Under the pieces are notes generated by a model that saw only the letters and a program-made list of their open reading frames with translations, searched no databases and had not been told where the DNA came from. A DNA stretch of 64,000 nucleotides, from positions 62,001 to 126,000 of the forward strand of contig NZ_FOUR01000003.1 in the NCBI RefSeq assembly GCF_900114925.1, in the 5' to 3' direction. The stretch is from Marinobacter pelagius. GTDB taxonomy: Bacteria > Pseudomonadota > Gammaproteobacteria > Pseudomonadales > Oleiphilaceae. Both the position numbers and the translations under genes were made by a program. Positions 3,724 to 57,691 of this stretch are shown one piece after another; within the stretch, counting starts at the first letter, position 1; the number at the start of each line of letters is the position of its first letter.

Positions 3724-3836
3724 GAATGCTTGGGGGACGGCTTTCCAAAACACGCTCCTTCGGCACGTCCCTGTGACGCTTGGGCTCCGCCATCCATGGC
3801 TCCGCACAGTTTTGGAAAGCCGTCCCCCAAGCATTC
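3724..3836. repeat. Giant hairpin element 1, core type A
   Basis: Perfect 28-bp inverted repeat (3724-3751 with 3809-3836) around a 57-nt core. The arms begin GAATGCTTGGGGG and end at the core with TTCCAAAAC. The core (3752-3808) is shared, apart from a few bases, with elements at 7277, 14980 and 16646 and contains GCTTGGGCTCC and CCATCCATGG. It lies in the divergent mreB/gatC spacer, so it is not a terminator for either flanking gene. Confidence 0.9.
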
Positions 3837-3920
3837 CCGGGCTTGTGAGTTGCCTTCAACCCGGAAGCACAGGCACCGACTCGACTTTTCATTAAATAAT
3901 CTTCACAGACTGGAGGCCAC

Positions 3921-4208
3921 GTGAGCATTTCCCGCGAGGACATTGAAAAAGTTGCCGTGCTCGCCCGCATCAAGGTGGACGACGAGCAGGTTTCGGCACT
4001 GGAGAAGGATCTGGGCAACATTCTGGATCTGGTGGATCAGCTGAGTGCCGCAGATACCGATTCCGTGGAGCCGATGGCGCATCCGCTGGATGCGGTTCAG
4101 CGGTTGCGGCCGGATGAGGTGACCGAGACCAATCAGCGGGAGGCGTTCCAGGCGATCGCGCCGGCGACCGAGGACGGTCTGTATCTGGTTCCGAAGGTTA
4201 TTGAGTGA
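3921..4208 (+). CDS. gatC: Asp-tRNA(Asn)/Glu-tRNA(Gln) amidotransferase subunit C
   Basis: GatC is the small stabilising subunit of the GatCAB amidotransferase, which converts Glu-tRNA(Gln) or Asp-tRNA(Asn) to the amidated form. The 95-aa product starts at GTG 3921 (MSISREDIEKVAVLARIKV), with TGGAGG at 3911-3916. The family pattern VAxLARI near residue 11 and DxVEPMAHPLD near residue 48 are present. It is the first gene of gatC-gatA-gatB, 57 nt ahead of gatA. GatCAB implies that this organism charges Gln and/or Asn at least partly by the indirect route. Confidence 0.95.
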   Translation: MSISREDIEKVAVLARIKVDDEQVSALEKDLGNILDLVDQLSAADTDSVEPMAHPLDAVQRLRPDEVTETNQREAFQAIAPATEDGLYLVPKVIE

Positions 4209-4265
4209 CCCCGGGCGGGAATCAATCATCGGACCATCTGACGACCAGCGATTTCAGGATTCATC

Positions 4266-5723
4266 ATGCATAACAAGTCTGTAGCAGAGCTTTCCCGAGA
4301 ACTGGAAAGCGGCAAGATCTCCAGTGTGGAGCTGACCCAGCAGTTCCTGGACCGTCTTAAGCAGGAAGACGGCAAGTACAACAGCTTTATTACCATCACC
4401 GAAGAGCAGGCGCTGGCCGAGGCCAAAGCGGCTGATGAGCTGCGGGCTGCTGGCAAGGCGACGGCCTGGACCGGGGTGCCTTTTGCCCACAAGGACATTT
4501 TCTGTACCAACGGCGTTCGCACCACCTGTGGCTCGAAGATGCTGGAGAACTTCGTGCCGCCGTACGATGCGACGGTGACCGAGAAGTTCCGGCAGGCCGG
4601 CGCGGTGTGTCTGGGCAAGACCAATATGGACGAATTCGCCATGGGCTCGTCCAACGAGTCCAGCTATTTTGGTGCCGTGACCAACCCGTGGGGCCTGTCT
4701 TCCGGTGAGAAGCGGGTGCCGGGTGGTTCGTCCGGTGGTTCAGCGGCGGCGGTGGCGGCGCGTCTGGTGCCGGCAGCTACGGCAACCGATACCGGCGGTT
4801 CGATTCGCCAGCCGGCGGCATTGTGTGGTGTGACCGGCCTGAAGCCGACCTATGGCCGGGTGTCCCGTTACGGCATGATTGCCTTTGCCTCTTCCCTGGA
4901 CCAGGGCGGCTCGATGGCGCGCACCGCCGAGGACAACGCGCTGATGCTGAACGTGATGGCGGGATTTGATCCGAAGGATTCCACGTCCATCGATCGGGAG
5001 GTGCCGGATTACACCGCCACCCTAAACGAGCCATTGAAAGGCCTGAAGATCGGGCTGCCGAAGGAATACTTTACCGACCAGCTGTCTCCGGCGATGGAGG
5101 AGCAGGTTCGCAATGCGGTGAAGGAATACGAGAAGCTGGGCGCGACGGTGAAGGAAGTATCCCTGCCGAACGCGAAGCTGGCGATTGCGGCCTATTACGT
5201 GATCGCGCCGGCGGAGGCCTCCGCCAACCTGTCCCGGTTTGACGGTGTGCGCTATGGCTACCGCTGCGAGGATCCGAAGGATCTGATGGACATGTATACC
5301 CGGACCCGCGCCGAAGGTTTCGGGGCCGAGGTGAAGCGCCGGATCCTGGTGGGCACCTATGCCCTCTCCCACGGTTACTACGATGCCTATTACCTGAAGG
5401 CCCAGAAGGTACGGCGGCTCATCCAGCAGGATTTCGCCAATGCCTTCAAGGAAGTGGATGTGCTGATGAGCCCCACCTCCCCGTCTCCGGCATTCGTTCA
5501 GGGTGAAAAGACCAACGATCCGGTCACCATGTATCTGGAGGACATTTTCACCATCGCGATCAACCTCGCGGGGCTGCCGGCCATGTCCGTGCCGGCCGGT
5601 TTTGTCGACGGGTTGCCGGTTGGCCTGCAGATCATCGGTGACTACTTTGCCGAAGCCCGGCTGCTGAATGCCGCCCACCAGTTCCAGCAGGTGACCGACT
5701 GGCACCAGCGTGAACCGAAATAA
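4266..5723 (+). CDS. gatA: Glutamyl-tRNA(Gln) amidotransferase subunit A
   Basis: GatA is the amidase-signature subunit that releases ammonia from glutamine for transfer by GatB. The 485-aa product is the usual family length. The Ser-cisSer-Lys triad is visible: Lys in AHKDIFC (about residue 76), the glycine/serine motif [10 protein letters not shown] (about 153-162) and the nucleophile Ser in TGGSIRQPA (about residue 179). It lies between gatC and gatB; its 3' end is 22 nt from the gatB start, so the three genes form an operon. No unusual features were seen. Confidence 0.97.
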
Positions 5724-5745
5724 GCCCGAGAGAGGAGACGAACAC

Positions 5746-55787: not shown

Positions 55788-55934
55788 GAGCCTGAGCTCC
55801 CGTTACAGAAACCGGTTTAAGAAAATTGGCCAGATACCTGTAAAGCATAGCAAAACAGGGGAAAAGGTCATAACTTAATCAAATTAAACTTCCGCAGTGA
55901 ATCCACCCGGACAACGCCCGCTGGCAAACCATCC

Positions 55935-57020
55935 ATGACCAAGCCACAAAAAACTCCTCCAGTACCGCCCGAACTCGATGATTTGCCAGGCAAAATCCGG
56001 CAATGGGCGCGAGAGCTGGGCTTTGCCGATGCTGGCATCACCCTGCCGGAAACCGGTCCCCACGCGGACCGGCTGCAGGCCTGGCTTGCCGAGGGATACC
56101 AGGGCGAGATGGACTACATGGGCCATCACGGCGACAAGCGTTACACCCCGACTTCATTGGTGCCCGGCACGGCGAGGATCATCTCGGTACGACTGGATTA
56201 TCTGCCGGCGCCGGATAACCCGAAACAAGCGCTCACTGACCGGGGAACCGCCTACGTAACTCGCTACGCCCTGGGGCGGGACTACCACAAGCTGATGCGC
56301 AAGCGCCTCGCCACTCTGGCGAAATGGATCGATGAGGCGGTCAGTGGGTTCGAGTACCGGGCTTTTGTCGACAGCGCTCCGGTGCTGGAGCGGGCGCTGG
56401 CACAACGGGCAGGACTGGGCTGGATCGGCAAGAACAACATGGTGATTCACCCGAAGGCCGGGTCGTTTTTCTTCCTGGGCGAGATTTTTACCAGCGCTCC
56501 CCTGCCGGTGGATCCGCCCTTCGAATCAGAACACTGCGGCAGCTGCTCCGCCTGTCTGGAGGTGTGCCCCACGGACGCTTTTGTCGGTCCTCACCTGCTC
56601 GATGCCCGGCGCTGCATCAGTTACCTGACCATTGAGCTGAAAGGTTCGATTCCGGAGGAATTGCGGCCGAAAATGGGTAACCGGGTGTTCGGCTGCGATG
56701 ATTGCCAGCTGGTCTGCCCCTGGAACAAGTTCAGCAAGCCGACGGCGGAGCAGGATTTCCAGCCCCGGCACGGGCTGGATAACAGTTCGCTGGCGGAGTT
56801 GTTCCTGTGGACGGAGGAGCAGTTCCTGAAACGGACGGAAGGGTCGGCTATCCGGCGTACCGGTTACGAGGGCTGGCTCCGGAATCTGGCGGTAGGGCTG
56901 GGCAATGCGCCTACCACAATTCCGGTGGTGGAGGCGCTGAAGCAGCGGGCGGACCACCCGTCAGAGATGGTCCGTGAGCATGTGCACTGGGCGTTACGCC
57001 GGCACGGGCTTACACCTTGA
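55935..57020 (+). CDS. queG: Epoxyqueuosine reductase QueG
   Basis: QueG reduces epoxyqueuosine to queuosine in tRNA, using cobalamin and two [4Fe-4S] clusters. The 361-aa product has the N-terminal domain with [24 protein letters not shown] (about residues 134-157) and clusters in [12 protein letters not shown] (about 194-205) and [11 protein letters not shown] (about 248-258). C-terminal HEAT-like repeats follow. It is divergent from nnr, and its last 11 nt overlap the convergent orn gene. Confidence 0.95.
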
Positions 57021-57552
57021 AGAAGTGGTCCCGGTAGTGGCGCAGTTCGTTGATCGAGTCTCGGATGTCGTCCAGCGCCAGGTGGCTGCCTTTTTTCTTC
57101 ACGCCGTCGAGTACGTCGGGGCGCCAGCGGCGGGCCAGTTCCTTAACGGTGGAGACGTCGAGGTTACGGTAGTGGAAGAAGGCCTCGAGTTCCGGCATGT
57201 ACTTTATCAGGAAGCGGCGGTCCTGGCCGATGCTGTTGCCGCACAGGGGTGATTCGCCGGGGCCCACGTGTTTTTTCAGGAACGCGAGGGTTTCCTGTTC
57301 GGCTGCCGATTCGGTGATGATGCTTTCTTTGACGCGTTTGGTGAGGCCGCTGGCTCCGTGGGTGTTAGTGCACCATTCGTCCATGGCCTCGAGGAGGCTG
57401 TCGGGCTGGTGGATTGCGATGACGGGGCCCTCCGCGACGATATTCAGTTCGGCATCGGTAATGATGGTGGCCATTTCTATGATGCGTTCTTTTTCCGGAT
57501 CGAGGCCGGTCATTTCCAGGTCGATCCAAACTAGGCGGTTGCCTTCTGACAT
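57010..57552 (-). CDS. orn: Oligoribonuclease
   Basis: Orn is the 3'-5' exonuclease that clears RNA dinucleotides, including pGpG from c-di-GMP turnover. The 180-aa product has the DEDDh residues: Asp and Glu in [10 protein letters not shown] (about residues 9-18), Asp in IGQDRRF (about 111) and His/Asp in HLALDDI (about 157-163). Length equals E. coli Orn (181 aa). Its stop codon lies within the queG coding region (11-nt convergent overlap). Giant hairpin 11 lies just upstream. Confidence 0.97.
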
Positions 57553-57581
57553 GTGTTCCTAACCTTCTGATTTGGGGGCAG

Positions 57582-57691
57582 GCTAGCAGTGGGGTAGCCT
57601 CTTCGGGAACCGCTACGAGCACGTCCATGTGCGCTTGTTTCAGGCCATCCTTGGCCTTCAACATTCCCGAAGAGGCTACCCCACCGCTAGC
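57582..57691. repeat. Giant hairpin element 11, core type B (reverse)
   Basis: Perfect 21-bp arms (57589-57609 with 57664-57684; GTGGGGTAGCCTC...), extended by one A·C mismatch and a GCTAGC/GCTAGC pair (57582-57587 with 57686-57691). The 54-nt core is type B in the same orientation as element 9. It lies in the divergent orn/rsgA spacer, 29 nt upstream of the orn start codon. Confidence 0.9.

What the first reader, a model, noticed from the sequence alone, without database searches (positions are those of the whole stretch)
3724..57691. Eleven giant intergenic hairpins with conserved cores and locus-specific, perfectly paired arms
Elements at 3724, 7277, 7484, 14980, 16646, 16931, 21781, 21942, 33777, 35953 and 57582 each have 20-29 bp arms; ten pair perfectly over the stated arms and one has a single mismatch. 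The conserved part is the centre, not the ends: the opposite of an insertion sequence. Arms differ between loci but keep pairing, with only a weak common inner pattern (TTCC...AAAC or GGGAC). This implies selection for the fold, or continual correction of one arm by the other (template switching). They lie in divergent, convergent and intra-operon spacers. A family of this kind may already be known under another name; I could not search.
Basis: partly seen in the sequence, partly recalled or inferred. Interest (0 to 1): 0.78.

Follow-up and report, generated by a model that had tools for sequence, protein, structure and literature searches.

The report
Dispersed double-hairpin CsrA-site RNA repeats
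About ninety copies of a small folded element, which on one strand presents two consensus binding sites for the global RNA regulator CsrA/RsmA on top of a long stem, are scattered between the genes of a Marinobacter genome, and the two arms of a stem mostly change together in evolution so that they still pair.

Summary
The 11 hairpins (10 with perfect arms of at least 20 bp) belong to a family of 93 model matches in this Marinobacter genome. It occurs in all 36 congeners searched and in 40 of 222 genera sampled from the class. Read on one strand, 91 of 93 cores hold two tandem hairpins with exact CANGGAYG loops, the RsmA/CsrA site consensus, 23-25 nt apart. The architecture matches Rfam TwoAYGGAY (RF01731), itself proposed to bind CsrA; copies here score below its cut-off, some congener copies above. 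Arm mismatches on that strand are G.U 39 against A.C 1, so this strand's fold matters, most simply as RNA. Between close species the arms diverge about as fast as their flanks, mostly as paired Watson-Crick swaps, transversions as often as transitions. That fits arm-to-arm copying plus selection. Against: no own promoter was found, orientation to genes is random, and one case suggests that whole elements move. Best reading: a dispersed, sponge-like set of CsrA/RsmA-binding RNA elements whose stems template switching helps to keep paired. CsrA binding and transcription are untested. New variant of a known kind.

The parts
3724..3836 (-). element; the strand given carries the two CANGGAYG hairpins (GGA strand)
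   Evidence: 28-bp perfect arms
7274..7384 (-). element, first of a divergent close pair
7484..7672 (+). element whose second GGA hairpin is interrupted by an insertion (133 nt between the arms instead of 54)
   Evidence: 30.6 bits; not among the 93
14973..15101 (+). element upstream of miaB
16646..16760 (-). element, first of the pair between miaB and phoH; one arm mismatch (G.U on the GGA strand)
16931..17038 (+). element, second of the pair between miaB and phoH
21775..21886 (-). element e1 of the pair upstream of leuS
21942..22043 (+). element e2 of the pair upstream of leuS
33768..33879 (-). element
35953..36062 (+). element
57582..57691 (-). element; one mismatch in its 28 arm pairs

Best explanation
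Each hairpin is one copy of a dispersed RNA element of the TwoAYGGAY type. The working molecule is RNA from the GGA strand: a stem of about 25-30 bp that holds up two short hairpins, each with a CANGGAYG loop, 23-25 nt apart, a layout that should suit one CsrA/RsmA dimer. Together the ~90 copies would act as a genome-wide sponge or buffer for CsrA/RsmA. The stem sequence is largely free as long as it pairs; it is kept paired by arm-to-arm copying (template switching) and by selection on the folded RNA. SHOWN here: family, copy number, loops, architecture, strand asymmetry, paired evolution. INFERRED: transcription, CsrA binding, titration, and template switching as the physical cause.
For: Exact CANGGAYG in both hairpins in 91 of 93 cores; 0 on the opposite strand of the cores and 0 in the arms read on the GGA strand. 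The consensus is printed for RsmA/RsmF sites in PMC9308961 (passage). RF01731 hits one element in each of the 6 loci tested, always on the GGA strand (29.6-39.4 bits, cut-off 43; these loci hold 8 elements), and exceeds the cut-off in 6 of 58 genomes, 5 of them congeners. PMC4333381 predicted CsrA binding for RF01731 and mentions tandem G.A in a stem (passages); GA/GA or GGA/GGA loops occur in 71 of 93 copies here. On 92 copies the inner 20 arm pairs are 99.6% paired, 19 of 20 with both-side changes. Mismatch asymmetry 39:1, in every orientation class (8:0, 3:0, 9:0, 18:1), repeated in G002 25:3, G060 21:1, other Marinobacter loci 29:4 (partly overlapping sets). Paired changes. csrA found in 57 of 58 relatives.
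Against: No sigma-70-like promoter enrichment upstream of the GGA strand, and orientation to neighbouring genes is random (33/27/17/15 of 92), so it is unclear what transcribes about half of the copies. RF01731 scores are sub-threshold in this genome (best 41.3; 9 matches at E 0.001 or better), and 2 of the 8 elements in the loci had no RF01731 hit. The A opposite Y at the loop is unpaired on the GGA strand in 77 of 92 (second hairpin) and 12 of 92 (first hairpin) copies, where the other strand would pair it as G.U; this fits a CsrA site, but it is the one place where the other strand pairs better. csrA was not found in 4 of 44 element-bearing genomes of the class, one of them 98% complete, and was found in 18 of 20 without an R2 match, so co-occurrence says nothing. 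Clustering of paired changes was not significant (p 0.10 and 0.12). One element seems to have moved or been copied between loci.
Confidence: 0.56

Rival explanations
1. Functionless inverted repeats kept perfect only by template switching at replication (quasi-palindrome correction); the conserved core is homogenised by recombination or is a remnant.
For: Paired changes are fast: arms retain no more ancestry than the adjacent 60 bp (0.51 against 0.62); double transversions 55 against double transitions 52, like single changes in flanks, 658:625; PMC8794818 (abstract and passages) describes the mechanism.
Against: Copying cannot by itself explain mismatches stable on one strand only (39:1) or exact CANGGAYG loops with free N and Y in 91 of 93; core 94% identical where outer arm pairs are 69%.
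Confidence: 0.12
2. A selfish DNA repeat moved as folded single-stranded DNA (REP/BIME-like), the GGA strand being the strand that a transposase recognises.
For: High copy, intergenic, variable presence at orthologous sites (present in 10 of 19 readable leuS spacers), 3 to 73 scored matches between congeners, opposite orientation at four orthologous sites compared with G000, close pairs always divergent (13 of 13). One element of G002 at the site of 14973 has nearly the arms and core of the G000 element at 3724 although the flanks are unrelated (16 of 18 outer pairs): a likely move or copy between loci.
Against: No Y1 transposase (PF01797) hit in eight congeners with 57-73 scored copies: G001, G005, G008, G009, G019, G021, G022, G024; apart from that case and one weaker one with a different core, matches of arms between non-orthologous sites stay in the range of unrelated copies of one genome, at most 15 of 18; resident copies keep pairing at the same site in many species; no match on plasmids (two queries) or phages (one query).
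Confidence: 0.18
3. Local cis elements of the neighbouring genes: terminators, mRNA-end stabilisers or CsrA-controlled leaders.
For: Intergenic 92 of 93; some lie directly before a likely ribosome-binding site (21775, by eye); Rfam types RF01731 as Cis-reg.
Against: No preferred orientation to genes; the leuS copies lie upstream of a conserved promoter-like block (by eye); asymmetry holds in copies antisense to both neighbours (9:0); PMC2864571 marks the family as probably not cis-regulatory (table row).
Confidence: 0.1

Closest known systems
TwoAYGGAY RNA (Rfam RF01731)
   Same: External stem, two tandem hairpins with A-N-GGA-Y loops in the same order, G.A-type internal loop in most copies, same strand; significant covariance-model hits.
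   Different: Copies in this genome fall below the gathering score; here it is a ~90-copy dispersed repeat with locus-specific, mostly perfect or near-perfect arms of 25-30 bp. The 2010 paper lists it as a probable RNA, probably not cis-regulatory (table row seen).
CsrB/CsrC and RsmX/Y/Z/V/W sponge RNAs
   Same: GGA hairpins matching the CANGGAYG consensus; expected to bind CsrA/RsmA.
   Different: Two sites per element at many loci rather than many sites in a few genes; no own promoter recognised. The best RsmZ-model hit in this genome (27.1 bits, cut-off 44) has only two GGA in the 200 nt read.
REP/BIME and RAYT-linked palindromes
   Same: High-copy intergenic palindromes, sometimes in inverted pairs.
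   Different: REP stems are conserved (recalled; PMC3733652 seen in a listing only); here the stems are free and the centre is conserved, and Y1 transposase is not needed.
Template-switch-maintained RNA stems (PMC8794818)
   Same: Paired one-step changes keep stems perfect.
   Different: That study infers it from histories of RNA genes such as rRNA and microRNA; here ~90 replicate stems per genome offer a direct test.

Membership tests
TwoAYGGAY (RF01731) | two adjacent hairpins with GGA in the loop (AYGGAY) | tested here: met
   CANGGAYG twice in 91 of 93; strict AYGGAY holds only where N is C or T
TwoAYGGAY (RF01731) | external stem around both hairpins | tested here: met
   helix 1, 99.6% of cells paired
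TwoAYGGAY (RF01731) | tandem G.A in one stem (stated in PMC4333381) | tested here: inconclusive
   GA/GA or GGA/GGA loop in 71 of 93 by pattern; the other 22 differ
TwoAYGGAY (RF01731) | score at or above the curated cut-off of 43 bits | tested here: not met
   0 in the window, best 41.3 in this genome; met in 6 of 58 genomes, 5 of the same genus
CsrA/RsmA sponge RNA | binds CsrA/RsmA and relieves its targets | not testable with these tools
   needs gel-shift, CLIP or a reporter
CsrA/RsmA sponge RNA | transcribed small RNA with its own promoter | tested here: inconclusive
   no sigma-70 enrichment; no RNA-seq available
REP/BIME (RAYT) | associated Y1 transposase | tested here: not met
   no PF01797 hit in eight congeners with 57-73 scored copies
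MITE / insertion sequence | conserved terminal inverted repeats | tested here: not met
   arms differ between copies; only weak motifs outside the stem
MITE / insertion sequence | target-site duplication at an empty site | tested here: inconclusive
   spacers with and without copies, or with different arms, diverge too much to place the ends

The most novel reading that the evidence does not exclude
A regulator sponge that is not one gene but a dispersed population of ~90 interchangeable RNA elements per genome, gained, lost and sometimes moved locus by locus, whose stems are rewritten arm-to-arm in single mutational events. It would be a natural, replicated system in which template switching maintains RNA structure and in which CsrA activity is set by element copy number.
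Probability: 0.35. Interest if true: 0.8.

Novelty: new variant of a known kind. Interest (0 to 1): 0.62.

Why it matters
If transcribed and bound, these elements would mean that a global regulator is titrated by a high-copy repeat family with fast turnover in many Gammaproteobacteria, a way of setting the free CsrA/RsmA level by copy number. Independently, ~90 long stems per genome with largely free sequence and dense species sampling make the old question of how RNA stems stay paired (two-step compensation or one-step template switching) directly testable.

Tried and rejected
Rfam at curated cut-offs gave nothing in the window; the permissive search gave many microRNA hits that only reflect a long hairpin. 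A leader or 3'-end role for the neighbours was judged unlikely on orientation. A fixed promoter was sought and not found; the tool's scan of 14000-23000 gave 3 promoter-like sites against 2.1 expected, none next to an element, and its terminator rule cannot see stems with such long loops. Mobility by RAYT: rejected as the general cause. Plasmid (two queries) and phage (one query) carriage: no match. Movement of whole elements with their arms: I first took the matches of 16-17 of 18 pairs between non-orthologous sites for missed orthologs; checking the flanks showed that they are not, and that one, with a core that differs at one base, is a likely move or copy. I therefore raised the mobile rival from 0.15 to 0.18 and lowered the best explanation from 0.58 to 0.56. 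Inversion of the core inside its arms as the cause of random orientation: at the flipped sites inspected the arms differ and at one of them the outer motifs flip too, so loss and gain is as likely. Canonical RsmZ in this genome: only sub-threshold hits, the two best too poor in GGA on reading. Clustering of paired changes: not significant. Co-occurrence with csrA: not informative. In one search two of the five measures did not exceed shuffles clearly (pairs with a change on both sides 12/500; further pair types 444/500), the other three 0/500.

Rows dropped: C14:90278 was left out of A4 (92 of 93); 4 of 93 with short arms were left out of the flank profiles; 11 of 55, 7 of 46 and 12 of 46 orthologous sites were left out of the pair counts because their arms were under 60% identical; the transition:transversion count uses 75 of 147 comparisons, those with arms at least 13/18 alike, not independent across the three species pairs. 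G002 and G060 were sampled in stretches: 65 and 57 elements were compared, against 89 and 86 model matches in those genomes.

Not in print: searches gave no paper on these elements as a repeat family; the library holds open-licence papers only, and I judged most of them from listings. Read in passages: PMC4333381, PMC2864571, PMC9308961, PMC9788540, PMC11701678; abstract and passages: PMC8794818. The link of GGA loops to CsrA was first recalled, then checked in these papers.
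Full report
OBSERVATION. All eleven hairpins are present at the stated places. Perfect 20-bp arms with loops of 20-160 nt occur at 12 places in the window, ten of them elements of the finding, and at none in 50 order-1 simulations. 16646 and, taken to its stated ends, 57582 have one mismatch each.

FAMILY. The window lies in a 3.8-Mb genome (G000) whose closest phoH-locus relatives are titled Marinobacter, with one exception titled Halomonas. 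A covariance model from ten of the eleven elements (R1) finds 93 copies in the genome; the interrupted element 7484-7672 is not among them. The own genome and all 36 other genomes of the genus searched have matches, 3 to 73 (73 candidates were scored at most), as do 4 of 21 genomes of other families of the order. With a second model (R2, 92 copies) 45 of 274 genomes of the class, own included, from 40 of 222 genera, have matches at E 1e-6 or better, with at most 15 candidates scored per genome. The eleven representatives folded (L275-L285) show the same long stem with two GGA hairpins.

ANATOMY. On the strand opposite to the TCC core (here the GGA strand) 91 of 93 cores have two loops that match CANGGAYG exactly, with free N and with Y as C or T, motif starts 23-25 nt apart; the opposite strand of the cores and the arms have none. 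CANGGAYG is printed as the RsmA/RsmF site consensus in PMC9308961 (passage). The stem of the first hairpin varies by covariation, and 71 of 93 copies have a GA/GA or GGA/GGA loop in it. Arms: 99.6% of cells paired over the inner 20 pairs, 19 of 20 pairs with changes on both sides, all four Watson-Crick types in 14 of 20. Outside the stem there is a weak 3' motif, C.CCcAAaccAGAa, and a weaker 5' motif.

WHICH STRAND FOLDS. In 93 copies arm mismatches, read on the GGA strand, are G.U 39, G.A 12, G.G 9, U.U 2, U.C 1, A.C 1 (complemented). G.U against A.C is 39:1 (binomial 7e-11). R1 was built on the other strand, which would favour the opposite result. The bias holds in copies antisense to both neighbours (9:0) and in other genomes (25:3, 21:1, 29:4, partly overlapping sets). 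The simplest reason is that the GGA strand must fold, as RNA; a folded single DNA strand is not excluded.

CONTEXT. 92 of 93 copies are intergenic; orientation to the neighbours is random: 33 sense to both, 27 antisense to both, 17 and 15 mixed. All 13 pairs of copies closer than 200 bp point their GGA strands outward; 7274/7484 in the window is a further such pair. No promoter enrichment was found. csrA was found in 57 of 58 relatives.

HOW THE ARMS EVOLVE. Upstream of leuS, 10 of 19 readable loci among L052-L071 hold elements or remnants and 9 hold none. Across orthologs at this site the arms differ widely yet mostly pair. In two close relatives (G002, G060) I matched 55, 46 and 46 orthologous sites by their flanks. 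Where arms could be compared (44, 39, 34 elements), paired Watson-Crick swaps were 156, 136 and 105; single changes between Watson-Crick and G.U 30, 28 and 20, C.A 7, 4 and 4, other 8, 9 and 7. In 61 of 147 comparisons only 11 or fewer of the outer 18 pairs are identical, the range of unrelated copies (8.1 +/- 1.8). In the 75 less diverged comparisons there were 107 paired swaps, 52 of transition and 55 of transversion type, against 625:658 for single changes in the flanks, and 39 G.U, 4 C.A and 11 other single departures from Watson-Crick. Normalised retention is 0.51 for arms and 0.62 for the adjacent 60 bp; the core is 94% identical. Arms are therefore not slowed by the need to pair, as two-step compensation through harmful intermediates would predict. 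One-step copying of one arm to the other (template switching; PMC8794818, abstract and passages) fits better; tolerance of G.U, G.A and G.G intermediates on the GGA strand is a partial alternative, and constraint on the flanks could mimic part of it. Clustering of paired changes was not significant.

TURNOVER. At four sites the G000 element lies opposite to that of a relative. One element of G002, at the site of 14973 by both flanks, has almost the arms and core of the element at 3724 of G000: the one good sign here that an element with its arms can move or be copied. How new copies arise stays open; Y1 transposase is not required.

KNOWN FAMILIES. RF01731 TwoAYGGAY hits one element in each of six loci tested (6 of 8 elements) on the GGA strand, below its cut-off, gives 9 sub-threshold matches in this genome, and passes the cut-off in 6 of 58 genomes, five of this genus. 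It was listed in 2010 (PMC2864571, table row) and predicted to bind CsrA in PMC4333381 (passages). I therefore describe these elements as TwoAYGGAY-like, not as formal members. I found no print on TwoAYGGAY or CsrA sites as a high-copy repeat.

MECHANISM. Most likely: read-through or pervasive transcription yields a long-stemmed RNA that offers two CsrA/RsmA sites to one dimer; many copies together buffer the regulator. Shown: what concerns sequence, strand and evolution. Inferred: transcription, binding, titration, template switching. Open: what transcribes them, why close pairs diverge, and how copies spread.

Noticed in passing
window 10841-11038, 12721-12900, 14040-14202, 20946-21165: Clusters of a different repeat, GGGGTCAGA..TCTGACCCC palindromes of about 30 bp, REP-like; the one Y1 transposase hit of the genome lies elsewhere (C9:545830).
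   Followed up: no
window 7484-7672: Element with 79 nt extra in its second GGA hairpin; its arms are still perfect, so the core can grow without loss of arm pairing.
   Followed up: partly
window 16760-16930 and L052, L053, L057, L064, L067: A similar stretch (ACTTGTTTTT...CGGGCCTGCAAATAG) before the second element of the miaB-phoH spacer, not seen in the element-free spacers printed.
   Followed up: no
L179 (leuS upstream), L059: L179: the second element is reduced to a short hairpin, the core and inner arms being gone. L059: the two elements of the pair appear fused.
   Followed up: partly
L189 (leuS upstream, e2): Its two arms match two different species' alleles and mispair at six positions: probably a recombinant with the breakpoint in the core.
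   Followed up: no
G207 contigs C97, C171, C188: At least three contigs of this genome begin within 25 bp of an element, so the repeat may break assemblies.
   Followed up: no
G051 (same order): Nine csrA hits in one genome that also has 49 element matches.
   Followed up: no
G002 L248:17884-17980 and window 3724-3836: Near-identical arms and core at non-orthologous sites in two species: likely movement or copying of a whole element.
   Followed up: partly
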